A program made the translations under genes and the position numbers. Shown piece after piece: positions 15,569 to 26,083 of a DNA stretch of 64,000 nt. This stretch comes from Sphingomonas swuensis (lineage in GTDB: Bacteria; Pseudomonadota; Alphaproteobacteria; Sphingomonadales; Sphingomonadaceae). Positions within the stretch are counted from its first letter, which is position 1. Each line of letters begins with the position of its first letter. The notes under the pieces are model-generated. The model saw only the letters and a program-made list of their open reading frames with translations. It was not told where the DNA came from and searched no databases. The stretch is from NCBI RefSeq assembly GCF_039538045.1, contig NZ_BAABBQ010000001.1, forward strand, positions 1,572,001-1,636,000, given 5' to 3'.

Positions 15569-15781
15569 TTACGGAGCGGGCGCCGCTTCCGCCGTGCAGA
15601 TGGTGGTGCCACCATCGGGATCTTCGCAGATCTTGTCGCCAGCGCCGAACAGCGCGCGCGAGATGTCGCCGCCGAGCGCGACGGCACCGGCCGCGATCAG
15701 CGACCCGACGATGGCGAGAATGAGCGCATATTCGGCCGCCGAAGCGCCGGACTCGTCACGAATCATCTTGAAAAAGGTCAT
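15569..15781 (-). CDS. flp: Flp-type major pilin
   Basis: The product is 70 aa, typical of Flp/Fap pilins. The leader is MTFFKMIRDESG, followed by the processing motif G|ASAAEY with Glu at +5 and Tyr at +6, exactly as Flp prepilins require. The helix ALILAIVGSLIAAGAVALGG follows. The tail has two cysteines (KICEDPDGGTTIC) and an Ala/Pro-rich end. ATG at 15781 starts the Tad operon; the long 5' extension of the ORF was rejected. Cleavage needs a prepilin peptidase (CpaA/TadV), which is not found near this locus. Confidence 0.95.
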   Translation of the reverse strand: MTFFKMIRDESGASAAEYALILAIVGSLIAAGAVALGGDISRALFGAGDKICEDPDGGTTICTAEAAPAP

Positions 15782-16183
15782 GGATAATCCCCTTCCGTCC
15801 TGATGGGCCCCCGCTGGGCTGCCCCGAGCTAAGCCGCTTGGCTGGAAGAGGTTGTCCCCCTCATCAATCTGGACGGTGCGTGTTGGATGCCGATGGCTTC
15901 CGCTGCCGCACCGATCGATTACCCAGGTCAATCGGCTGGGTTAAGAGAATGCTAACATTTCAATGAAGTCAACCAGCCTTGCTAACCTGCATCAGTATCT
16001 TGGACTTGGTTCCGTAGGGACTAAGTCGTTGCGACGTGCCGATATTTAAATCAGGTTAATCCGTTCGATCTAGACCGGTCGGGATAGCGAAGGTGTCTCA
16101 AAGCTGGGCAAATGTGTCGCGACGAACGCACAAAGGTGCGGTTTCGCTACTGTTCCGAAACGATTTTCGAATCGGCCAGGCGG
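15782..16183. other. Intergenic region upstream of the flp pilin
   Basis: About 400 bases without a gene; the stretch 15930-16060 is locally AT-richer than its surroundings. It must hold the pilin/Tad promoter and the end of the upstream membrane-protein gene. A CtrA-like site lies at 15940-15955. No ORF with a plausible start, and no clear -24/-12 element, was found. Confidence 0.4.
15940..15955 (-). promoter_or_regulatory. Candidate CtrA site upstream of flp
   Basis: Read on the minus strand, the site is TTAG-N7-TTAAC, one mismatch from the CtrA consensus TTAA-N7-TTAAC. It lies about 160-175 bases upstream of the flp start, in the same orientation. CtrA activates pilA in Caulobacter, so control of Tad pilin by CtrA is plausible here, but one near-match can occur by chance. 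Confidence 0.4.
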
Positions 16184-16966
16184 TCAGGACGGCTCGCGCA
16201 AACGGTAGGTGACGTTCACTCGGGTCGAGAGCAGCAGATAGGGTAGCCAGATGGCGACGCTGATCAGCACCTTCTTGATGTTGGCGTCGAGCAGTCCGGA
16301 CAGTGAGACGGCGATATTCGCCGGCAACCCCGCGTCCGACGCGGCTCGACCGATCAGCAGCTGCGAGAGGATGTCGAGCAGCCAAACCAGCAGCAGAAAG
16401 CGCGGAAAGAGCGCGACCTTGCGAAGCGCCATGACGAAGGCGACCACGTAGAGACTGGTCAGCACGACCGTGTCGAGCGTCATCGCGAGGTGCAATGTCG
16501 ACAACCATGCCGGGACATGGTGCGGAATGGCCGGCATGGTGACCAGATATTCGGCCGTTCGCACCGGCACGTTCATCAGCATGCCGATGAGCAGCGAGAC
16601 CATGATCCCGCTGGTGCCATAGAGTGGATGCCGCGCCGCCGCCTCTCGCGACAGCGCTGTCCAGCGTCCGATCCGGGCGAGCCGCCATTGCGGCTGAGGC
16701 AGGTCCTCGCCGTTGTCGAACCAACGGAGCGCCAGCCCGAATGTCGCGACCGGTGCCAGGGTCAGGAGAAGATAGGGTGCAAGGCGAACGTCGCTGCTCG
16801 GAAGCGGGCTGACCCAGACCCTGGCCGCGCTCGCCAGCACGGCGATCACCAGCCAGACGACCACCAACGTCGGAAGTCCGCCTTCCAGACGCAGCAGCAG
16901 GGTCTTGGAGCGGGCATGGAGACGGCGGCTGGCCGTGTCGAACAATGGGGCGACGAACGAGAGCAA
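16184..16966 (-). CDS. Multi-pass membrane protein with DUF2569-like C-terminus
   Basis: The product is 260 aa with about six TM segments, including TLVVVWLVIAVLASAARVWV, LLLTLAPVATFGLAL, GIMVSLLIGMLM, TLDTVVLTSLYVVAFVMAL and VLISVAIWLPYLLL. The C-terminal IWLPYLLLSTRVNVTY closely resembles the end motif of DUF2569 (YdgK-like) proteins. The start is TTG at 16966, chosen because AAAGGA sits 8 bases upstream. It shares strand with the PP2C gene 127 bases upstream, so it may belong to the signalling module, but nothing in the sequence gives a function. Confidence 0.65.
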   Translation of the reverse strand: MLSFVAPLFDTASRRLHARSKTLLLRLEGGLPTLVVVWLVIAVLASAARVWVSPLPSSDVRLAPYLLLTLAPVATFGLALRWFDNGEDLPQPQWRLARIGRWTALSREAAARHPLYGTSGIMVSLLIGMLMNVPVRTAEYLVTMPAIPHHVPAWLSTLHLAMTLDTVVLTSLYVVAFVMALRKVALFPRFLLLVWLLDILSQLLIGRAASDAGLPANIAVSLSGLLDANIKKVLISVAIWLPYLLLSTRVNVTYRLREPS

Positions 16967-17093
16967 CGCGAGAGTCCTTTCGGCCGATCCCGCTCTTTCT
17001 CGACCCTTGCCCTTTCGACTTGGTTAATGCCTTATTCGGTCTCGATGTTCCCTCCGCTTGCACCCCGCCTTGCAGAGCAGGACGGCAAGGCCA

Positions 17094-17795
17094 TCAGGCA
17101 ACCCGGATCAGGACCAGCGTGAGGTTGTCGGGAGCGCCCCGCTGGAGCACCGACCAGACCAACCCGTCGGCGACCTCGTGGAGCGATTGGGCGCCGCCCA
17201 GCGCCGCGCGGAGTTCCGGATCGGGGACCATCCTGGTGACTCCGTCCGAAGCGAGCAGATAGACGTCGCCGGGGCGCACCTCCCCAGCTTCGATGTCGAG
17301 CCGGAGCGTGTCCGAGGCCCCCACCGCACGGGTGATGACATTGCCGTTGGGATGCTCGTCGGCGCGCTCGGCTTCGATCATCCCGGCTTCGATCAGTTCG
17401 TTCACCAGGCTGTGGTCACGGCTGAGCGGGACCAGCTGACTGTCGCGATAGCGATAGGCACGACTGTCGCCCGCCCAGAAGCAGAGCGCCTGCGCCTCGT
17501 CGATCAGCAGTCCGACCACCGTGCTTCCGATGGTCCGCTTCTCCCCTCCCTCCTCGGCCAAATCGCGCAGGCCGCGGTTCACATGGCCAAGGCAGGCGGA
17601 GATCTCGTCGGGAGTGACCCGGGCGAGCGCGCCAAGGGCTTCGACGATCCGGGCGCTCGCCACTTCGCCGGCCTCGTGCCCGCCCATGCCGTCGGCGACC
17701 ACGAACAGCCCGGCCGCGGATCGCACCAGCAGATTGTCCTCGTTGATCTTGCGCTTGAGCCCGACGTGGGTCCTGCTGACGGTTTCGAACCTCAT
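17094..17795 (-). CDS. PP2C-type Ser/Thr protein phosphatase
   Basis: Mn2+-dependent PPM phosphatase, 233 aa, about the size of Stp1/PppA. The motifs RKINEDN (Asp20), VVADGMGGHEAG (Asp35), ALCFWAGDSRAYRYRD, ASDGVTRMV and APDNLTLVLI carry all the metal-binding aspartates. It is predicted soluble and cytoplasmic. It is divergent from the kinase gene 17886-20165 with a 90-base spacer, so it most likely reverses that kinase's phosphorylation. PppA/PpkA pairs are known from type VI secretion loci, but no secretion genes occur here. Confidence 0.93.
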   Translation of the reverse strand: MRFETVSRTHVGLKRKINEDNLLVRSAAGLFVVADGMGGHEAGEVASARIVEALGALARVTPDEISACLGHVNRGLRDLAEEGGEKRTIGSTVVGLLIDEAQALCFWAGDSRAYRYRDSQLVPLSRDHSLVNELIEAGMIEAERADEHPNGNVITRAVGASDTLRLDIEAGEVRPGDVYLLASDGVTRMVPDPELRAALGGAQSLHEVADGLVWSVLQRGAPDNLTLVLIRVA

Positions 17796-17854
17796 CGGCT
17801 GCAGCCTCGCGCCCGTTTCGCAACCCTAGCAATTAACGCCGGATCATGCGAAAA

Positions 17855-17871
17855 GTTAAGCACCACTTAAC
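17855..17871. promoter_or_regulatory. Perfect CtrA-type box between phosphatase and kinase genes
   Basis: GTTAAGCACCACTTAAC is a near-perfect palindrome and matches TTAA-N7-TTAAC exactly. It lies 60-76 bases upstream of the phosphatase start and 15-31 bases upstream of the kinase GTG. By position it could activate the phosphatase promoter and repress the kinase. The match is seen directly; binding is inference. Confidence 0.6.
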
Positions 17872-17885
17872 TCAGGGGCCCGGCT

Positions 17886-20165
17886 GTGAACAAGGCTTAC
17901 AGCACCAAGGCGCTGCCACCCGGCACCGTTCTCCGGGAATGGCGCCTCGAGGAGGTGCTCGGCGTCGGCGGGTTCGGCATCGTCTACAAGGGCCGTGGAA
18001 TCTACTTCAACGAGCTCGTCGCCATTAAGGAGTATTTCCCGAGCTCGATCAGCGAACGCGACGAAGAAGCCACCGTCGTCCCAGTCGACTCCGAGGTGAG
18101 CGAGGTGCACGCGCTCGGCCTCAAGAAGTTCGTCGAGGAAGCCAAGCTGCTGTGGAACCTCTCGACGCCCTCGCGCCACCCCAACATCGTCAGTGTCCGA
18201 AGCCTCTTCGAGATCCACGGCACCGCCTACATGGTGATGGACTTCGAAGACGGAGTCTCGCTCTCCCGGCTGATCAAGCAGGGCCAGAAATGGAACGAGC
18301 GGAGCCTCGTCGCGCTGATCAAGCCGATCGCCGACGGGCTCGAGCGGGCGCATCGCGTCGGGGTCCTCCACCGCGACATCAAGCCGCCCAACATCCTCAT
18401 CAACGACAGCGGCCGGCCAGTGCTGATCGACTTCGGCTCGGCCCGCTTCGAAGCAGCCGAGGCGACCAGCACCAAGGTCACATTCCACACCCCGCCCTAT
18501 GCGGCGATCGAGCAATATGTGAAGACCTTCGAGCAGGGGCCGTGGACCGACATCTACGCGCTCGGCGTGGTGCTCTACGAATGCGTCACCGGCGCCAAGC
18601 CGCCCGAGGTGCTCGAGCGGATGCATGGCGGCGCGGGCACGCCGCTCGCGGAGGGGAGCTGGCCCGGCTACAGCAAGCGCTTTCTCCGCGCGGTCGACGC
18701 GGCGATGGCGATCAAGCCGACCGATCGGCCGCGCTCCATCTCGGACTGGCTGCCGATGTTCGACGGCGGCGAAGACGAACCCGAACCGGCCGAGGCCGAC
18801 TTCGACGTGACCCGCATCGTGCCGTTCGACACCTCGTCCGAGGCGATCGTTCCGCTCGCCCCAGCTCCCTCGGGCTTCGTTCCAGGCCAGTCGCTCAAGA
18901 CCGGAGTGCCCGATCGGCCGAGCGAGGCCGAGTTCAAACGCAGCGGCCATACGAAGGCCACACGCAAGCCGCGCGCGAAGAAGGCCGCGAACCCCACTCC
19001 CGCCGAGAGCGTGGCCGTCTCCGCCGCTAAGCCCGATACGCCTCCACCTGCCCCACCGGTCAGCCAGTCGACAGGGAAGCCCGAACCCGCGGGCGCCGCG
19101 ACGCGCCCGAATAGGAAGCCGCTCATCGCCGGCGCGGCCGCGGTGCTGGTACTCGCCACCGCCGGCGGCTGGATGCTGCTCCGGCCCTCCCCCACGCCCG
19201 TCGCCGCGGGCGAGCAGATCGTCGTTCCCGACACACCGGCCCCCGTGGTCGTACCGCGAACTGCGCTTGCGAGCGGCGCCGCTGCCTTCCTTGCCGAAGC
19301 CAAGGCCGCCTCGGCGCCCGACGATGCAGTCGAGCCGCTGGCCTCGCTGACGACCCTGCTGGGGGCACCGCCCGCCGGGCTCGACGACGCTCAGGCAGGC
19401 GAGCGCGTCAGGAGCGTCTACGGCCAGTTCGCCGCCACCCTCCTCCAGTCGGTCGATGCCCAATCGACGAAGATGGCGGAGCAGATCGCCTGGACGAGGG
19501 CCGACCCGAACAGCCTTCCACCCGAGCGACAACTCGTTCTTGTCGGCGCGCGACGGAGCCTCGCGGACCTTCGCTCGGCCGAGCTTCGCACCCGCACCGC
19601 GACCGACCCCCGCCAATCACTGGAAGCCGCGCGGCAGGCGCTCGGCCACTATCGCGCCTTCACCGAGGCCTCGACCGCAATCGCCAACCTCGATAGCGCC
19701 GATCAGCGTTCCGCCGCGCGGCTGGCGGCAGCGGAGGAACGAACCCTGCCCGCCCCGACCGCCGTGCGTCCGGCTGCGAGCGCGGTGAAGTCCGCGGCCT
19801 CGCCCATCCCGACCAGCAGCGCGGCCGCTCCGACTTTAGCCACAACCTCCGACAGCCTGTCGCCAGCGTCGACCAGCCAGTTCAACGCACTCGTCGGCGA
19901 AGCCCGCGACATGGCGCGGCAGGTCATACGAATGGGGGACCGCGCCAAGGCCGGCTCGTCGCCGCAGGAGCGGGCCGATGCCGAGCTGCTTCGCTCCAAC
20001 GCCCAGCTTGCACGGACCTATGACGCGAGCCTCGTCCGCCTCAAGGACGTATTCCGCTCCGTCGGGTCGGATCGCCAGGCCGACCCGCTGATCAGGCAGG
20101 CGCGGCAGACGCGGGCCTATCTGGTGTTCCTGGTCAAGCGTTCGACCGACGCATCGCGGCGGTGA
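17886..20165 (+). CDS. Transmembrane Ser/Thr protein kinase (PpkA/Hanks type)
   Basis: The product is 759 aa. The kinase domain (about residues 18-290) is complete: glycine loop GVGGFG (26-31), Lys48 in VAIKEYFP, HRD at 162-164 in HRDIKPPN, DFG with Asp182, and an APE-like segment replaced by PPYAAIEQY. The VAIKEYFP form is typical of kinases found with PppA phosphatases and FHA proteins. A Pro/Ala-rich juxtamembrane region and a single TM (about 411-432, LIAGAAAVLVLATAGGWMLL) are followed by a ~320-residue helical extracytoplasmic sensor region with no family match. The start is GTG with AGGGG upstream. The FHA domain of the nearby TIR protein is an obvious candidate reader. Confidence 0.94.
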   Translation: MNKAYSTKALPPGTVLREWRLEEVLGVGGFGIVYKGRGIYFNELVAIKEYFPSSISERDEEATVVPVDSEVSEVHALGLKKFVEEAKLLWNLSTPSRHPNIVSVRSLFEIHGTAYMVMDFEDGVSLSRLIKQGQKWNERSLVALIKPIADGLERAHRVGVLHRDIKPPNILINDSGRPVLIDFGSARFEAAEATSTKVTFHTPPYAAIEQYVKTFEQGPWTDIYALGVVLYECVTGAKPPEVLERMHGGAGTPLAEGSWPGYSKRFLRAVDAAMAIKPTDRPRSISDWLPMFDGGEDEPEPAEADFDVTRIVPFDTSSEAIVPLAPAPSGFVPGQSLKTGVPDRPSEAEFKRSGHTKATRKPRAKKAANPTPAESVAVSAAKPDTPPPAPPVSQSTGKPEPAGAATRPNRKPLIAGAAAVLVLATAGGWMLLRPSPTPVAAGEQIVVPDTPAPVVVPRTALASGAAAFLAEAKAASAPDDAVEPLASLTTLLGAPPAGLDDAQAGERVRSVYGQFAATLLQSVDAQSTKMAEQIAWTRADPNSLPPERQLVLVGARRSLADLRSAELRTRTATDPRQSLEAARQALGHYRAFTEASTAIANLDSADQRSAARLAAAEERTLPAPTAVRPAASAVKSAASPIPTSSAAAPTLATTSDSLSPASTSQFNALVGEARDMARQVIRMGDRAKAGSSPQERADAELLRSNAQLARTYDASLVRLKDVFRSVGSDRQADPLIRQARQTRAYLVFLVKRSTDASRR

Positions 20166-20193
20166 GCAAGCTCGTGCATTGCGGGAGTGAACG

Positions 20194-20643
20194 GTGCTGA
20201 TCGCCCTGCTGGTCGCCGCCGCGTTGACCGCCGCCTGCTGCTACGTCCATCTCGTGGTGCTTCGCCTGCTCAAGCGGGTTGTCGACGCGCCCCGCCCGAT
20301 GGGTCACCCGTTGCTATTCATCATCCTTGTGCTGTTCGCGACCCATGTCTTCGAGGTCGTGCTGTTCGCCTTCGCACTGTCGGCGCCCGACTGGGCCGAC
20401 TACGGGCGTCTTGAAGGCGCGATCGTGGGCGGCCCCGGCTGGTTCGAGGACCATTTCTACTTCTCGATCGCCTCCTACACGACGCTCGGCATCGGCGACA
20501 TCGTTCCCGCCGGCCCGATCCGGATCGTCGCCGGAATGGAAGCGCTGACCGGGCTGGTCATGGTCGCCTGGAGCGCCTCCTTCACCTACCTCGCGATGGA
20601 GCGTCTCTGGACCCGCACCAACAGCGACGCCCACAAGCTCTAG
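20194..20643 (+). CDS. Small two-TM potassium-channel-like protein
   Basis: The product is 149 aa. It has an N-terminal hydrophobic segment (about 2-26), a TM at about 38-63, a pore helix and selectivity filter TTLGIGD at 96-102 (compare TVGYGD; Ile replaces Tyr), and a closing TM near 110-130. Such ion_trans_2 pores assemble as tetramers. The start is GTG at 20194, 28 bases after the kinase stop with GGGAG upstream, so it is co-transcribed with the kinase. Its stop overlaps the convergent SLOG gene's stop within CTAG. Filter and size support a channel; selectivity is not proven. Confidence 0.8.
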   Translation: MLIALLVAAALTAACCYVHLVVLRLLKRVVDAPRPMGHPLLFIILVLFATHVFEVVLFAFALSAPDWADYGRLEGAIVGGPGWFEDHFYFSIASYTTLGIGDIVPAGPIRIVAGMEALTGLVMVAWSASFTYLAMERLWTRTNSDAHKL

Positions 20644-22430
20644 GCCGGGATCTCGAGCGAACGTTCGCTGTAGGTCGCGGTCCATTCGTTGAGGTCGGCA
20701 AGCATGATGCTCGCGCTATTCTCCAGCTCGTGCGCGAGCTGCTCGAGATCGGCGACCTGACCGAGCCGCTCGGCGTTGGCGGCCAGCGCCTCGGCGCTGT
20801 GGGCCGAGCGGCTCGCAGCCAGCAGATGCTCGCCATGGCCGCGCATCCCGAACACCGCCGCGCCGATCGCTGGAAGTCCGGCGGTAAGGAAGATGAAGGG
20901 CCCGGTCAGCCGTGTCGTCCATTCGTGCACCAGGAAGTAGCCGCCGATGTAAAGGAAGCAGGCGGCGATAACCGCGCCGATGAGGAAGTTTCCGATCTCG
21001 TGAAGGCGATGGTCGAGCTTGTGCATCCGCTCGCTGTTGACCCGGTGATAGGCGGCCTGCGGGAGCAGCTGCTCGCGAACGACGTCCCCGGCGAGAAGTC
21101 GTATGCCCTCCTCGGTCAGCTCGCCTACCGGCCAGTCCATCTGCCGCCACACCGCGGCGGCGTACCAGCGGGTCCAGTCCGATCCGCCGCGCTCCTGGCG
21201 GCGGTTGCGGGCGACGCCCTCGGTGCGGAACGGCGGGCCGACCATCCCAGTGCGCTTGAGGTAGAGAAAGGGCCGCAACGTCTCGGCGAGGTAGCGATAT
21301 TGCAGCCACTTGCGGTGCCAGTCGCCGCGCGTCCCGGCATTGGTGTTGAGGAACAGCAGCCCGATCACCCCGAGTTCCGCGACTACCAGCAGGATCTTGA
21401 TCGAGGGCACGATGAGCCCGAACAGGGCGAGGTTCACTGCCAGCGCGGAGAGCACGTAGTTGGTGATGTGCCCGCTCCGGAACAGCTGGGCGTAGCGGAT
21501 CGCGAGGAAGTTCGCCCAGGCGTAGGATTGCGACAGCGCCTCGCGCATCCCAGCCGCGCCCGGCTCGCGCACTTCCCGCCAATCGCTGGCGATCTCCTCC
21601 TCAATCGACGGCTGACGCCAGGGAACGCGAGGCAGGCCCTTGACCCGCAAGAGCCACAGCAGGAGCGGATACTCCATCCGCAGGTTGGTCGTGCGTGCTT
21701 CCTCGCTTAGATAAAGCTCGGCCTGGGCGCGGGCAGCGGGCTCGGGCAGCAGCACTTCGGTCAGCAGCGTGACGATCGCTTCCGCGCTGCAGATCGGCGT
21801 TCGCTGGTAATCGATGATGTCGCGTCCGAAGATCAGCAGCGGCTCGCCGGCGACGCCCTGCGCGCGGTCGATCGGGACGTGGATGACCGGCACTCCGTTG
21901 GTCAAGGCGAGGTCGACGACGTGCGCCGTCCCGCCCGGCCCATTGCCGTTGCCGCCATCCCACACCGCGATCAGGATGTCGGAAGCGGCGACCACCGCCT
22001 TGCCGACCTGAACATAGGCCGCCTCGGCGTCAGCACGGTCGGAGGGGAGCGCGAACACCTCGTGGGCGAGCTCGAGCTGCTGGACGAATTCGCGCCGCTC
22101 GCGCCCGCGCTTGAAGTCGGCGCTATATTCGTCTGCGGCAAAGGGAAGCAGCGCGCGGATCCGGAAGCCCGCCTCCTGAGCCACCGTCGCCGCCATCTGG
22201 TCGGCGCCGGTGGCAAGCGGCGTATGCAGCCGAAGCTGGGGCGTGCTTGCCGCGAACAGCTCCGGATGGTCATCGTGGAGCTGCTCGGTCACGTCTCGCA
22301 ACTGGTCGAAGATGCGGCGGATGATCGGCGAGGTCTGCGCGACGAGGTCAGGGGACAGGACCGAGGCGCGGTGTCCCGTGATCCCGATGTTGAGGGTCAG
22401 TCGTGGCCGTGGTGGATGTGCCTCGCTCAA
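20640..22430 (-). CDS. SLOG nucleotide-sensor protein with paired 2-TM (SLATT-like) units
   Basis: The product is 596 aa. The first ~230 residues are a SLOG/Rossmann-like domain: LNIGITGHRAS near 13-23, LATGADQMAATVAQEAG, AASDILIAVWDG and GGTAHVVDLALTNGVPVIHV. SLOG domains bind nucleotides or nucleotide-derived ligands. Two hydrophobic hairpins follow, at about 320-362 and about 480-535, with WLQYRYLAETLRPFLYL between them, a motif seen in SLATT-type membrane effectors. The start is TTG with GGAGG about 10 bases upstream. It is followed convergently by the K+ channel-like gene and preceded by the TIR-FHA gene on the same strand 35 bases away, so the two are one transcription unit. A pore role is inferred. 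Confidence 0.78.
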   Translation of the reverse strand: MSEAHPPRPRLTLNIGITGHRASVLSPDLVAQTSPIIRRIFDQLRDVTEQLHDDHPELFAASTPQLRLHTPLATGADQMAATVAQEAGFRIRALLPFAADEYSADFKRGRERREFVQQLELAHEVFALPSDRADAEAAYVQVGKAVVAASDILIAVWDGGNGNGPGGTAHVVDLALTNGVPVIHVPIDRAQGVAGEPLLIFGRDIIDYQRTPICSAEAIVTLLTEVLLPEPAARAQAELYLSEEARTTNLRMEYPLLLWLLRVKGLPRVPWRQPSIEEEIASDWREVREPGAAGMREALSQSYAWANFLAIRYAQLFRSGHITNYVLSALAVNLALFGLIVPSIKILLVVAELGVIGLLFLNTNAGTRGDWHRKWLQYRYLAETLRPFLYLKRTGMVGPPFRTEGVARNRRQERGGSDWTRWYAAAVWRQMDWPVGELTEEGIRLLAGDVVREQLLPQAAYHRVNSERMHKLDHRLHEIGNFLIGAVIAACFLYIGGYFLVHEWTTRLTGPFIFLTAGLPAIGAAVFGMRGHGEHLLAASRSAHSAEALAANAERLGQVADLEQLAHELENSASIMLADLNEWTATYSERSLEIPA

Positions 22431-22465
22431 CCTCTCCTCGCCTCCCCCTGCCTTGCCACTCGTTC

Positions 22466-23365
22466 TCAGCCCTCGTTCCCGCTCCGCTTCGCGTGGACGA
22501 GTTCGACATTTCCGATCTTCAGCACCGACCCGACCGCAAGGAAGCTCGCGCCCTTGATCCGCTTGCCGTCGACGAAAGTCCCGTTGGTCGATCGCAAATC
22601 GGTCACCCGCAGCCGATCGTCGGCGAGTTCGACCAGGCAGTGCGCACGCGACACGACAGGTTCGGCAAGGATGATGTCCGATGGCGCGGTCCGCCCGATC
22701 CTAAGCCCCGCGCCGGTGACCACGAAGCGTTTCTCGATCCGTCCCCCCACCCTCAATTCGAGCGCATGGAAGTCGGCCGCCATCCCCCCGAGCGGGTCGC
22801 GCTCGACCCGCGCCCGGGCGGAATGGTCTCGCTCCTGCTCGAGCACGGCGCATGATCCCTGGGATGCTCGATCATCGGCGGCTTCGAGACGGGCGGCGGA
22901 GGCCGCGGGATCGAAGCGACGCCGGACGGGCGCTCCCGACTCTGACCCGGCGAAGGCGATGCCGTGCCCGCGCGCCGCGGCCTGCTTCAGGTCATCGACA
23001 AACCGGCACCATGCCGGATCGTCGGTTTCTCCCGACCAGCCCGACAGGTCGGTGGTGTGGGTCAGCTGGAAGATGATCGGGAGCTCGCATTCCTCGATCA
23101 TGATCGGCGCCATCTTGCCGAGGCGGTCGGCGAGCGTTGCCTCGGCCCGCACCCAGCGCGAGCGTACGCTGCTTGGCGACCACAGGACGACCACCGTTCG
23201 AGCAGCGCGCAGGTTGCGCTCGATCACCTCGTCGAAGGTTTCGCCCGAATGGAGCGCGGCATCCCACCATACGCTCAGGCCCTCGGCCTCGAAGCACTGC
23301 GCGAAGTGCTTGGCCACAGCGCGATCGGTCCGCGCATAGGAAATGAAGATGTCGGTCCCTGGCAA
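22466..23365 (-). CDS. TIR-FHA fusion protein
   Basis: The product is 299 aa from TTG 23365, which has AAGGGA 7 bases upstream; a longer TTG start at 23428 is possible. The TIR domain (1-135) has TDIFISYARTDRAV, GLSVWWD and LHSGETFDEVIERNL. The segment VVVLWSPSSVRSRWVRAE carries Glu75, at the position of the catalytic glutamate of NAD-cleaving TIRs. A ~75-residue Ala/Arg/Glu linker leads to a C-terminal FHA domain (about 205-290) with RIGR at 222-225, SRAH (Ser239, His242) and STNG (Asn261), all the phosphothreonine-binding positions. It likely cleaves NAD or makes a cyclic product and is recruited or gated by a phosphorylated partner. The domain calls are firm; the function is inference. Confidence 0.9.
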   Translation of the reverse strand: MPGTDIFISYARTDRAVAKHFAQCFEAEGLSVWWDAALHSGETFDEVIERNLRAARTVVVLWSPSSVRSRWVRAEATLADRLGKMAPIMIEECELPIIFQLTHTTDLSGWSGETDDPAWCRFVDDLKQAAARGHGIAFAGSESGAPVRRRFDPAASAARLEAADDRASQGSCAVLEQERDHSARARVERDPLGGMAADFHALELRVGGRIEKRFVVTGAGLRIGRTAPSDIILAEPVVSRAHCLVELADDRLRVTDLRSTNGTFVDGKRIKGASFLAVGSVLKIGNVELVHAKRSGNEG

Positions 23366-23576
23366 GGTCGCGTCCCTTGTCCGGGCAAGCCGCCCGTCTC
23401 CCCACTCCTTCCGACGCGCCGAACACAACCGAGTCGCGCCACAACCTTGTCAATTAATTCTGGTTAAGAGTCGAGCAGCCGCAATCCCATGCGGATCGGG
23501 GGAGGCTTAGAAAGCCAAGCTTTCGCCTCGCCGCTACTCGCCGCGAGCGCTTGGGATCCTGGTCGATGTTCTAGGA

Positions 23577-23651
23577 TGGCTGGGGCGGCAGGATTCGAAC
23601 CTGCGAATGCCGGTACCAAAAACCGGTGCCTTACCGCTTGGCGACGCCCCA
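23577..23651 (-). tRNA. tRNA-Gln(TTG)
   Basis: A full cloverleaf is readable on the minus strand: acceptor TGGGGCG with CGCCCCA, D arm GCC..GGC, anticodon arm CCGGT-TTTTGGT-ACCGG giving anticodon TTG, and T arm GCAGG-TTCGAAT-CCTGC. Discriminator G and CCA are encoded (23577-23580). It reads glutamine CAA/CAG codons. It lies just outside the TIR-SLOG-kinase module, and tRNA 3' ends are common integration sites, but no integrase is present. Confidence 0.97.
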
Positions 23652-23695: not shown

Positions 23696-26083
23696 TCATG
23701 CCGCGCGGATCGTCGGGCGGCGCTTGGGGATGGTGCCGAACGGCGGTTCGACAGCGGTGTGGGCGTCAAACGGGATCTCGGGCCGACCGAACAGGAAGCC
23801 CTGCAGCTGGCCGCAACCGAGTGCGACCATCAGCGCAGCCTGTTCCCCGGTCTCGATGCCCTCGGCAGTGACATCAAGGTCGAGCCCGCGGGCGAGCGTC
23901 AGGATCGATTCGACGATCGCCCTCTCGGCTGGACGTCCAGGGGCCGCGGCGGCGACGGTGAAGCTGCGGTCGATCTTGAGCGTGTTGAACTCACCGTTGG
24001 TGAGGCAGGCGTAGCTCGAATAGCCCATTCCGAAATCGTCGAGCACCAGCCGCACCCCTACCGCGCGAAGCTGGTCGAGCGTGGTCCGGGTGGTCGCGTC
24101 CCCGGCGAGGAAGATGCTTTCGGTCACTTCTAGTTCGAGCCGCCGCGCCTCGAGCCCGCTTGCGGCGAGGGCATGGATGACATGGCCAACCAGCGCTGGC
24201 CCAGCGGCGAGCTGCGCGCTCGAGACGTTAACCGCGACACGAGCGCCATCGACCCACCCTGCGGCTTCCCGACAAGCTTCGCGAAGCACCCAGTTGCCCA
24301 CCTGGCCGATCAGCCCGGCGTCCTCGATCACCGGAACGAACAGGTCGGGTGCGACCTCGCCGCGCACCGGGTGGGTCCAGCGCAACAGCGCCTCGCGGGC
24401 AATCACCTCGTGGCTGCGGGCGTGGACGATCGGCTGGTAGGCCAGGCTCAGTTCGCCGAGCTTGAGCGCCGAGCGAAGATCGCTTTCGAGCGCACGGTTG
24501 GCGGCCGCCTCCTCGGCCATTGCGCCCTCGAAGAAGAGGAAGCTGCCACGGCCGGCCTTTTTGGCGCTGTAGAGGGCAAGGTCGGCGCTTCGGGTAAGGC
24601 CTTCCTGCGTGATGCCGTCGAGAGGGGCGATGGCGATCCCGATGGTCGCCCCGATATTGAGTTCCGCGCCCGATATCCGATACGGCGCGGAGAGGACCAC
24701 GATCACCGCTTCGGCGAGGTTGGACAGGGTCTCCCGGTCGGTTGCGCCGGTCAGCACCAGTGCGAACTCGTCACCGCCGAGCCGGCCGACCTGGTGCGCC
24801 GGAGCGATCCGTTCGAGGCGCCGGGCCACCTCGCACAGCAGTTCGTCGCCGACCTCGTGGCCGAGCGTATCGTTGACCAGCTTGAAGCGGTCAAGATCGA
24901 CCAGCATCAGCGCGCAGCCCCCGCCCATCGGCCGGCCGCGGATCAGCGCCTCCTCCAGCAGTTCACGCACGAGCAAGCGATTGGCGAGACCTGTCATCGG
25001 GTCGTGGCGGGCCGCAGTGATGCTGTCGTGACCGGTCAGCCTCGAGAGGGTGATGTCGGACCCCACCCCGCGCCAGCAGGTCAGCCGCCCCGCTGCGTCG
25101 AACTGTGGCTTGCCCGACAGCAGCCACCAGGCCCGTCCGCCCTTCGCCGGGATGGCGAGGTCGCGGAACGAGCGGCTCGAGCGAAGGGAATCGAGGATGT
25201 TCCTCATCCCGGCCGAAACCGCGGACACGCTGTGATCCGGGTCGAGCAAGTCGATGATCGGGCGCCCGATCAAGTCCTGCGGCCGTTCGCCGATCGCCGC
25301 GGCGAGCCCGTCCGACAGATGGGCGACGGTAAGATTGGGGGCCAGCTCCCACAACCACTCGCTGCCCGAGGCGTCAAATTCGCGAAGCAGGTTTATGAGC
25401 TCGCCCTTCTCCTCGAGCTCGAGCGTCGCGGCGAGATGCCCTGCGAAATGGCGGACGTTCCACAAGATGGCGTAGGTCAGCAGCCCGGTGTAGATCGGCG
25501 TCAGGAAGAGCGCCGAGGACTGCTCCAGCTTCAGCATCGCGATCAGGCTGGATATCGCGACCATGGCGACGAACAGCAGCGCGGCGGGCGGCACGGTCGA
25601 CATGGTGACACTCGCCCCGCTCGCCATTCCGAACAGGATCAGGATCAGGGCGACCTGGGCGGCCGGCGAGACATGGTCGAACCAGAGGAACGCGGGCAGC
25701 ATCCACAGTAGGGTAAGCCCCCCGATCGGCCACATGATGGTGCGGATCGTCGGCGGCTTGGCCCGGGCATATTCGGGGTTCCGCCGCAGCCGCGCGAACC
25801 GGATCAGCCGGGCGGCAGATACTCCGGTGATCAGCCCCGACCAGAGCAGGACCTGAAGATTCGGCAGGTGCGACCACAGAGAGATCGCAAGGACGATAGC
25901 GGCGGCGACGTTGACCAGGATGGTCATCGGTATCATCCGGACCAGCGCATCGATCTGGCCCTGGCGAACCCGCTCCTGCACCCGGTTCTGCGGTGGATTG
26001 AGGAAGCACAGAGTCGCAAGGTCGATCGGCGCTTCGCGAGCGCTGCCCTGCCCTGCTGGCGTTCGTCCCTGCCCCTCAGCCAC
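23696..26083 (-). CDS. Membrane-bound PAS-GGDEF-EAL cyclic-di-GMP enzyme
   Basis: The product is 795 aa. Six predicted TM segments occupy about 50-210, a PAS-like domain about 235-355 (GSEWLWELAPNLTVAHLSDGL), GGDEF about 365-525 with intact GRLGGDEFAL near 435, and EAL about 540-785 with EALLRW near 562, NVSSAQL, LDDFGMGYSS and TAEGIETGEQ. Both active-site signatures look intact, so it may make or degrade c-di-GMP; bifunctional proteins often act mainly as phosphodiesterases. The start is GTG at 26083. C-di-GMP normally switches between motility and attachment, which suits a neighbourhood with Tad pili. Confidence 0.94.
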   Translation of the reverse strand: MAEGQGRTPAGQGSAREAPIDLATLCFLNPPQNRVQERVRQGQIDALVRMIPMTILVNVAAAIVLAISLWSHLPNLQVLLWSGLITGVSAARLIRFARLRRNPEYARAKPPTIRTIMWPIGGLTLLWMLPAFLWFDHVSPAAQVALILILFGMASGASVTMSTVPPAALLFVAMVAISSLIAMLKLEQSSALFLTPIYTGLLTYAILWNVRHFAGHLAATLELEEKGELINLLREFDASGSEWLWELAPNLTVAHLSDGLAAAIGERPQDLIGRPIIDLLDPDHSVSAVSAGMRNILDSLRSSRSFRDLAIPAKGGRAWWLLSGKPQFDAAGRLTCWRGVGSDITLSRLTGHDSITAARHDPMTGLANRLLVRELLEEALIRGRPMGGGCALMLVDLDRFKLVNDTLGHEVGDELLCEVARRLERIAPAHQVGRLGGDEFALVLTGATDRETLSNLAEAVIVVLSAPYRISGAELNIGATIGIAIAPLDGITQEGLTRSADLALYSAKKAGRGSFLFFEGAMAEEAAANRALESDLRSALKLGELSLAYQPIVHARSHEVIAREALLRWTHPVRGEVAPDLFVPVIEDAGLIGQVGNWVLREACREAAGWVDGARVAVNVSSAQLAAGPALVGHVIHALAASGLEARRLELEVTESIFLAGDATTRTTLDQLRAVGVRLVLDDFGMGYSSYACLTNGEFNTLKIDRSFTVAAAAPGRPAERAIVESILTLARGLDLDVTAEGIETGEQAALMVALGCGQLQGFLFGRPEIPFDAHTAVEPPFGTIPKRRPTIRAA

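What the first reader, a model, noticed from the sequence alone, without database searches (positions are those of the whole stretch)
16184..23365. TIR-FHA / SLOG-TM / kinase / phosphatase / K+ channel module
Seen: an intact TIR domain with the WxxxE glutamate (Glu75) fused to an intact FHA domain (SRAH, STNG). On the same strand, 35 bases away, is a SLOG domain with two TM hairpins. Alongside are a complete transmembrane Ser/Thr kinase, a complete PP2C phosphatase and a two-TM channel with filter TTLGIGD. Known: TIR enzymes make NAD-derived signals and SLOG domains sense them (Thoeris ThsB/ThsA); SLATT-type TM units are predicted pores; FHA reads phosphothreonine. Inference: the kinase's phosphorylation state gates a TIR enzyme whose product opens a membrane effector, and a channel limits or completes ion collapse. 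I know of no described system with this exact set, so it is a candidate new immune or stress switch.
Basis: partly seen in the sequence, partly recalled or inferred. Interest (0 to 1): 0.93.

Follow-up and report, generated by a model that had tools for sequence, protein, structure and literature searches.

The report
Kinase-gated TIR-SLOG membrane switch
A sphingomonad bacterium carries a conserved gene cluster in which a membrane protein kinase and its matching phosphatase probably control an NAD-cutting immune-type enzyme whose small-molecule product is read by a neighbouring membrane protein, a wiring that I did not find described.

Summary
At 17094-23365 lie PP2C, a transmembrane Ser/Thr kinase, a small ion channel, a SLOG-membrane protein (SLOG-TM) and TIR-FHA, all open. 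It is a recurrent module: in 28 distinct TIR-FHA loci the kinase is nearby in 26, PP2C in 26 and a SLOG protein in 21 (16 SLOG-TM, 5 a TPR-S/SLOG/cyclase protein). A TIR gene lies within 7.5 kb of SLOG-TM relatives in 26 of 38 loci, about 0.66 expected. Kinase orthologues occur in 6 of 199 family genomes: five with TIR-FHA, one with an FHA-RsbU-type protein instead. A threonine motif like the ligands of GarA/OdhI/DgcB FHA domains follows the kinase domain (24 of 25) and precedes the FHA (102 of 116 located homologues; lost in the window's own protein). The SLOG folds like YpsA, more weakly like TRPM2. Best reading: kinase/phosphatase balance, read by FHA, controls TIR nucleotide production, and SLOG-TM turns the nucleotide into a membrane event. 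Chemistry, sign and trigger are inferred; a defence role is circumstantial. It is not Thoeris: SIR2 and macro domains were not found.

The parts
22466..23365 (-). TIR-FHA protein, 299 aa (open frame runs on to a possible start at 23428). TIR about 23027-23350, catalytic Glu75 codon 23141-23143, FHA about 22511-22702
   Evidence: Pfam TIR_2 and FHA over cut-off; TIR_2 place; invariant catalytic and phosphopeptide-binding residues in 37 relatives; profile matches to GarA/OdhI (FHA) and AbTIR/SARM1 (TIR) structures
20640..22430 (-). SLOG-TM protein, 596 aa: N-terminal SLOG (about residues 11-229) and two membrane hairpins
20194..20643 (+). Small ion channel, 149 aa, filter TTLGIGD
   Evidence: Ion_trans_2 over cut-off; filter TTLG[IL]GD in 21 of 21 relatives listed, two of which are one contig; converges on SLOG-TM with a 4-base overlap
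17886..20165 (+). Transmembrane Ser/Thr kinase, 759 aa; TM 413-431; Thr309 (codon 18810-18812) in the FHA-ligand-like motif DFDVTRIV
   Evidence: Pkinase 120.7 bits; motifs and TM; threonine motif in 24 of 25 relatives
17094..17795 (-). PP2C phosphatase, 233 aa
   Evidence: PP2C_2 over cut-off, Stp1-like 194.6 bits, below that model's cut-off of 230; DGMGG, GDSRAY, SDG and DN motifs
23577..23651 (-). tRNA-Gln (flank, not part of the module)
   Evidence: ARAGORN; beside the GGDEF-EAL gene in six relatives

Best explanation
A phospho-gated second-messenger module. (1) A membrane kinase with a conserved tail beyond its TM, opposed by PP2C, senses an unknown envelope or infection cue. (2) Phosphorylation of a threonine in an acidic T-[RK]-[IFV] motif on the kinase, and in most homologues of a same-shaped motif in the TIR-FHA linker, is read by the FHA; this recruits or releases the TIR, much as an FHA bound to its own tail activates the cyclase DgcB. 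In the window's own TIR-FHA the linker motif is lost, so kinase Thr309 is the likelier docking site. (3) The TIR converts NAD to an ADP-ribose-type nucleotide. (4) The SLOG of the neighbouring protein binds it and changes its membrane bundle, perhaps opening a pore, with the small channel adjusting ion flow; growth arrest or death follows, probably of phage-infected cells. Shown: gene content, linkage, conservation, motifs, folds. Inferred: phosphorylation and its sign, the nucleotide, the pore, the trigger.
For: Kinase in 26 and PP2C in 26 of 28 TIR-FHA loci, a SLOG protein in 21. Kinase in 6 of 199 family genomes, five of them those with TIR-FHA. TIR within 7.5 kb of SLOG-TM in 26 of 38 loci, about 0.66 expected. 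25 contig lengths shared between the 120 listed SLOG-TM and 120 listed TIR-FHA homologues. Motif in 24 of 25 kinases (shuffles 0.6) and 102 of 116 TIR-FHA (shuffles 3.8). FHA closest to ArnA, GarA, EmbR and OdhI; TIR to AbTIR and SARM1 entries. SLOG fold. FHA control of a second-messenger enzyme has a precedent in DgcB (PMC6733907, abstract and section 9). In the close relative G229, a type III restriction enzyme and a DrmD-like helicase lie between tRNA-Gln and TIR-FHA.
Confidence: 0.55

Rival explanations
1. Same wiring, but an envelope or general stress/dormancy switch rather than anti-phage immunity: the kinase senses envelope state and the TIR nucleotide slows growth through SLOG readers (membrane or cyclase).
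For: In G178 the same kinase and PP2C stand beside an FHA-SpoIIE phosphatase, STAS and HATPase genes, the parts of a sigma-factor partner switch. The kinase has one TM and a conserved C-terminal tail. In the seven loci whose flanking frames I listed, the flanks look like ordinary metabolic genes by eye (no family search). SLOG-TM is replaced by a cyclase-bearing SLOG in 5 of 28 loci.
Against: Patchy presence (20 of 61 genus genomes) and the defence island next to the module in G229 fit immunity better.
Confidence: 0.3
2. Two independent systems side by side: a kinase/PP2C/TIR-FHA regulator, and a SLOG-TM/channel pair that usually works with other TIR proteins.
For: 7 of 28 TIR-FHA loci have no SLOG nearby; most TIR partners of SLOG-TM lack FHA.
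Against: Where the SLOG-TM is gone, a different SLOG protein stands beside TIR-FHA in 5 loci, as one clade; 14 of the 16 SLOG-TM genes are within 5 bases of, or overlap, the TIR-FHA frame.
Confidence: 0.08
3. The TIR is a non-enzymatic scaffold that only assembles with other TIRs or with the kinase.
For: Bacterial TIR domains can also act in complex formation (general knowledge); in two loci, L167 and L173, a second TIR gene is adjacent.
Against: Catalytic glutamate invariant in 37 of 37 relatives; sequence profile closest to NADase TIR structures.
Confidence: 0.1
4. The SLOG is an enzyme that breaks down or makes the signal rather than a sensor.
For: LOG and PpnN, nucleotide hydrolases, are among the fold matches.
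Against: Best match is YpsA, whose clade PMC9503650 (passages read) describes as including cADPR sensors; the conserved loop reads PGGTAHVV, without the glutamate of the LOG motif (motif recalled).
Confidence: 0.08

Closest known systems
Thoeris with SIR2-SLOG ThsA (PMC11204291, passages read)
   Same: A TIR protein makes an NAD-derived signal and a SLOG in the neighbouring gene's product reads it (for this module: inferred)
   Different: Effector is a membrane bundle, not SIR2; TIR is fused to FHA and tied to a kinase and PP2C
Thoeris with TM-macro ThsA (PMC11204291, passages read)
   Same: TIR with a membrane effector carrying a nucleotide-binding domain
   Different: SLOG instead of macro domain; kinase, PP2C and FHA added
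TIR with SLATT 2TM gene pairs (PMC7159879 and PMC9503650, passages read)
   Same: TIR beside a membrane protein predicted to be a nucleotide-gated pore
   Different: SLOG fused to two hairpins; phospho-control by kinase, PP2C and FHA not mentioned in the passages seen for such TIR pairs
GarA/OdhI and DgcB FHA switches (PMC6733907, abstract and section 9)
   Same: FHA near a conserved threonine motif with glutamate at -2 and hydrophobic residues after the threonine; in DgcB it controls a second-messenger enzyme
   Different: Output is a TIR; the same motif shape is also on the kinase; the window's own linker copy is lost
TRPM2 N-terminal SLOG-type domain (ADP-ribose gating of TRPM2 recalled and in entry titles)
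   Same: SLOG-type domain on a membrane protein
CapK/CapS (PMC13373217, passages read)
   Same: A kinase linked to immune operons, type IV Thoeris among them
   Different: Acts on transcription through a STAS repressor; FHA is not mentioned in its main text

Membership tests
Thoeris (SIR2-SLOG type) | ThsA with SIR2 fused to SLOG | tested here: not met
   No SIR2 match in the SLOG-TM protein or the five neighbours scanned
Thoeris (SIR2-SLOG type) | TIR protein of the ThsB kind | tested here: inconclusive
   ThsB_TIR 23.8 bits over its cut-off of 21.2, but TIR_2 is far better at 79.5; best PADLOC ThsB match 25.7 bits
Thoeris (TM-macro type) | ThsA with macro domain | tested here: not met
   No macro match in the proteins scanned
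SLOG superfamily | SLOG Rossmann-like fold | tested here: met
SLATT | SLATT 2TM profile | tested here: inconclusive
   NCBIfam SLATT_1 26.4 bits against a cut-off of 41; DUF4231 14.7 against 24.7
GarA/OdhI-like FHA switch | FHA with intact phosphothreonine pocket | tested here: met
   R225, S239, N261 invariant in 37; GarA/OdhI matches
GarA/OdhI-like FHA switch | Threonine motif in the same protein before the FHA | tested here: not met
   Present in 102 of 116 located homologues, absent in the window's protein
NAD-cleaving TIR | Cleavage of NAD | not testable with these tools
   Only the invariant glutamate and sequence kinship to NADases can be seen
MADS (kinase MAD6) | Full-length MAD6 match | tested here: not met
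   116.7 bits against a cut-off of 460, over the kinase domain region
Type VI secretion FHA protein TagH | TagH profile | tested here: not met
   32.1 bits against 120.25; T6SS genes were not searched for

The most novel reading that the evidence does not exclude
A kinase/PP2C/FHA input cassette with plug-in outputs: the same kinase drives either a TIR second-messenger enzyme or an RsbU-type sigma partner switch, and the TIR's nucleotide is read by exchangeable SLOG effectors, one of them a bacterial nucleotide-gated membrane protein with a TRPM2-like sensor. TIR signalling would then be set by reversible threonine phosphorylation under a membrane-spanning sensor kinase.
Probability: 0.4. Interest if true: 0.88.

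Novelty: new variant of a known kind. Interest (0 to 1): 0.74.

Why it matters
How bacterial TIR systems are held off and switched on is largely open. Here the switch appears to be written in the gene order and in a shared threonine motif, so it can be tested with single point mutants. If right, it adds reversible phosphorylation under a transmembrane kinase to TIR signalling, shows one input cassette feeding different outputs, and offers a small bacterial model of a SLOG-gated membrane protein.

Tried and rejected
Chance neighbourhood: rejected. Thoeris membership: rejected, no SIR2 or macro match. DUF2569-like gene and Flp pilin as module parts: rejected. Phage, plasmid or viral-contig carriage: no match (TIR-FHA in viral contigs, and plasmids; SLOG-TM in plasmids and phages); this does not exclude mobility. 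A tRNA as the general insertion site: of 28 TIR-FHA loci only the window and L082 have a tRNA directly beside TIR-FHA, so not general. The TIR-FHA linker has pLDDT under 50, so no domain arrangement was read from that model; FHA fills its listed Foldseek matches, so the TIR was judged by sequence. A first motif script with too narrow an anchor found 14 of 25 kinases; the wider anchor found 24 of 25. On the 28 TIR-FHA loci a script found the linker motif in 17, with L087 not locatable and the anchor misplaced in L081 and L082. Family and genus genomes are samples (199 and 61). The scan kept 80 of 120 relatives. Paper searches found no description of this set in the held library; the 2015 SLOG/SLATT survey that I recalled is not held.

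Full report
WHAT IS THERE. The window is part of a 2.79-Mb single-contig genome. Order along the window: Tad pilus genes, Flp pilin (15569-15931), a DUF2569-like gene (16184-16966), PP2C (-), kinase (+), channel (+), SLOG-TM (-), TIR-FHA (-), tRNA-Gln (23577-23651), a GGDEF-EAL gene (23696-26083). Channel and SLOG-TM converge and overlap by 4 bases; TIR-FHA and SLOG-TM point the same way, 35 bases apart. The motifs looked for in kinase, PP2C, TIR and FHA are present.

IS IT A MODULE. TIR-FHA loci came from a genome-contig scan with the alignment A1 (120 relatives, 80 kept; 15 span TIR and FHA, and one, L087, is cut by its contig end), the family search and a genus search (20 of 61 genomes at E <= 1e-40). 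Ten fetched loci judged to lie on contigs already counted (equal contig lengths) were dropped: L052, L055, L172, L174, L175, L177, L178, L180, L181, L183. In the 28 that remain the kinase is found in 26 (not within 10 kb in L077; L087 ends there; in L081 and L085 only a part is on the contig), PP2C in 26 (L081 and L087 are at contig ends), SLOG-TM in 16, a TPR-S/SLOG/cyclase protein in 5, no SLOG in 7 (one, L079, on an 8-kb contig), and the channel in 11. The 16 include L081, whose frame matches only profile positions 18-247, the SLOG without the membrane part. The 15 loci with both domains bear sphingomonad or erythrobacter names; the scan's peptide patterns limit what it can find. Of the protein database hits, 120 of the 120 listed TIR-FHA homologues (of 1751 scored) carry both Pfam domains.

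SPECIFICITY OF THE KINASE. With its first 315 residues at E <= 1e-80, 6 of 199 family genomes have it. Five are those where one search shows TIR and FHA in one frame (G000, G058, G077, G138, G145). The sixth, G178, has the same kinase and PP2C beside FHA-SpoIIE, STAS and HATPase genes, and its FHA too is preceded by the motif (DIDQTQIV). L152 (G178) and L077 (Croceicoccus, TIR-FHA) share the flank on one side, so the output may have been exchanged at one site.

SLOG-TM AND TIR. SLOG-TM relatives occur in 44 of 199 family genomes. Forty stretches from 39 of them were fetched; G141, G166, G168 and G194 were not. In 38 loci with a match (one is the SLOG-cyclase variant, L055; L063 and L064 are fragments) a TIR gene lies within 7.5 kb in 26; TIR counts per genome predict about 0.66. 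The partners are of several architectures: TIR-FHA and two kinds of TIR-TPR. The channel is within 600 bases in 10 of 38. Trypsin-like and caspase-like proteins and flavoproteins recur nearby. In the class, 10 of 385 genomes match at E <= 1e-30; of the 8 outside the family, 2, of one genus, have a TIR beside it by my profiles.

EXCHANGE OF PARTS. A tree of 27 TIR-FHA proteins (L087 left out) puts the four SLOG-cyclase loci in one fully supported group (100/100); SLOG-TM needs 3 changes and absence 3. The simplest reading is one replacement of SLOG-TM by the cyclase form and repeated loss of the SLOG gene. That a SLOG is kept while its effector part changes is the strongest genomic argument that it reads what the TIR makes.

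THE PHOSPHO-SWITCH. Just after the kinase domain, in a poorly conserved linker, 24 of 25 kinases carry an acidic residue, one or two others, then T-[RK]-[IFV]; the exception, L169, has TQV in place. Just before the FHA, 102 of 116 TIR-FHA homologues carry an acidic residue followed by T-[QR]-[FIVYL] (four of 120 could not be located). Shuffled segments give 0.6 of 25 and 3.8 of 116; the sequences are related, so this shows conservation, not independent events. The DgcB paper describes the tails bound by such FHA domains as having glutamate at -2 and hydrophobic residues at -3, +2 and +3 (PMC6733907, section 9); DEATRI and EATQFY fit at -2 and +2, and in part at +3. The window's TIR-FHA has lost its own motif (DHSARARV in place), so kinase Thr309 is the only copy there.

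CONTEXT. The GGDEF-EAL/tRNA-Gln pair is kept in the six relatives examined, without the module directly beside it. In G229 the 17 kb between tRNA-Gln and TIR-FHA hold an integrase piece (24.9 bits, below its cut-off), a type III restriction enzyme (PADLOC 1577 bits) and a DrmD-like helicase (671 bits). In G218 an integrase, a PDC-S11-like protein and a PD-(D/E)XK nuclease follow the tRNA, with TIR-FHA 66 kb away. In the window the tRNA is 148 bases from the TIR-FHA frame. So in one close relative the module borders a defence island; in seven other loci the flanking frames look ordinary by eye.

VERDICT. A genuine, recurrent module whose parts are of known kinds, in a wiring for which six paper searches found no description. 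Phosphorylation-controlled TIR-to-SLOG signalling is the best-supported reading; defence is more likely than not but unproved.

Noticed in passing
L152:6823-11923: Same kinase and PP2C beside an FHA-SpoIIE (RsbU-type) protein, STAS and HATPase genes: the kinase cassette with a different output.
   Followed up: partly
L074:7975-9792, L078:8026-9819, L080:8030-9817, L087:7131-8933, L182:10776-12566: TPR-S/SLOG/Guanylate_cyc proteins in the place of SLOG-TM beside TIR-FHA (Pfam on the first four; L182 by my profile).
   Followed up: partly
L057:10550-12493, L066:4455-6413, L167:5177-7045, L047:13198-15168: Trypsin-like proteins, and in L047 a caspase-domain protein, beside TIR and SLOG-TM genes: a possible TIR-SLOG-protease association.
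   Followed up: no
L050:10409-12643, L049:10128-12299, L096:6703-9813: Flavoprotein-like genes (NAD_binding_8 in L050 and L096; L049 by clustering) beside or between SLOG-TM and TIR genes.
   Followed up: no
window 20194-20643 and 20 relatives: Channel filter TTLG[IL]GD almost invariant, with Ile or Leu where the potassium-channel consensus (recalled) has Tyr or Phe.
   Followed up: partly
window 23577-23651; L153:8797-10719; L154:6657-12177; L169:15615-18491: tRNA-Gln beside the GGDEF-EAL gene is a variable site in close kin, with integrase, type III restriction and DrmD-like genes; in the window it is 148 bases from TIR-FHA.
   Followed up: partly
L089 and L099: MAG contigs labelled Gammaproteobacteria with runs of three or more large TIR genes next to a SLOG-TM gene.
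   Followed up: no
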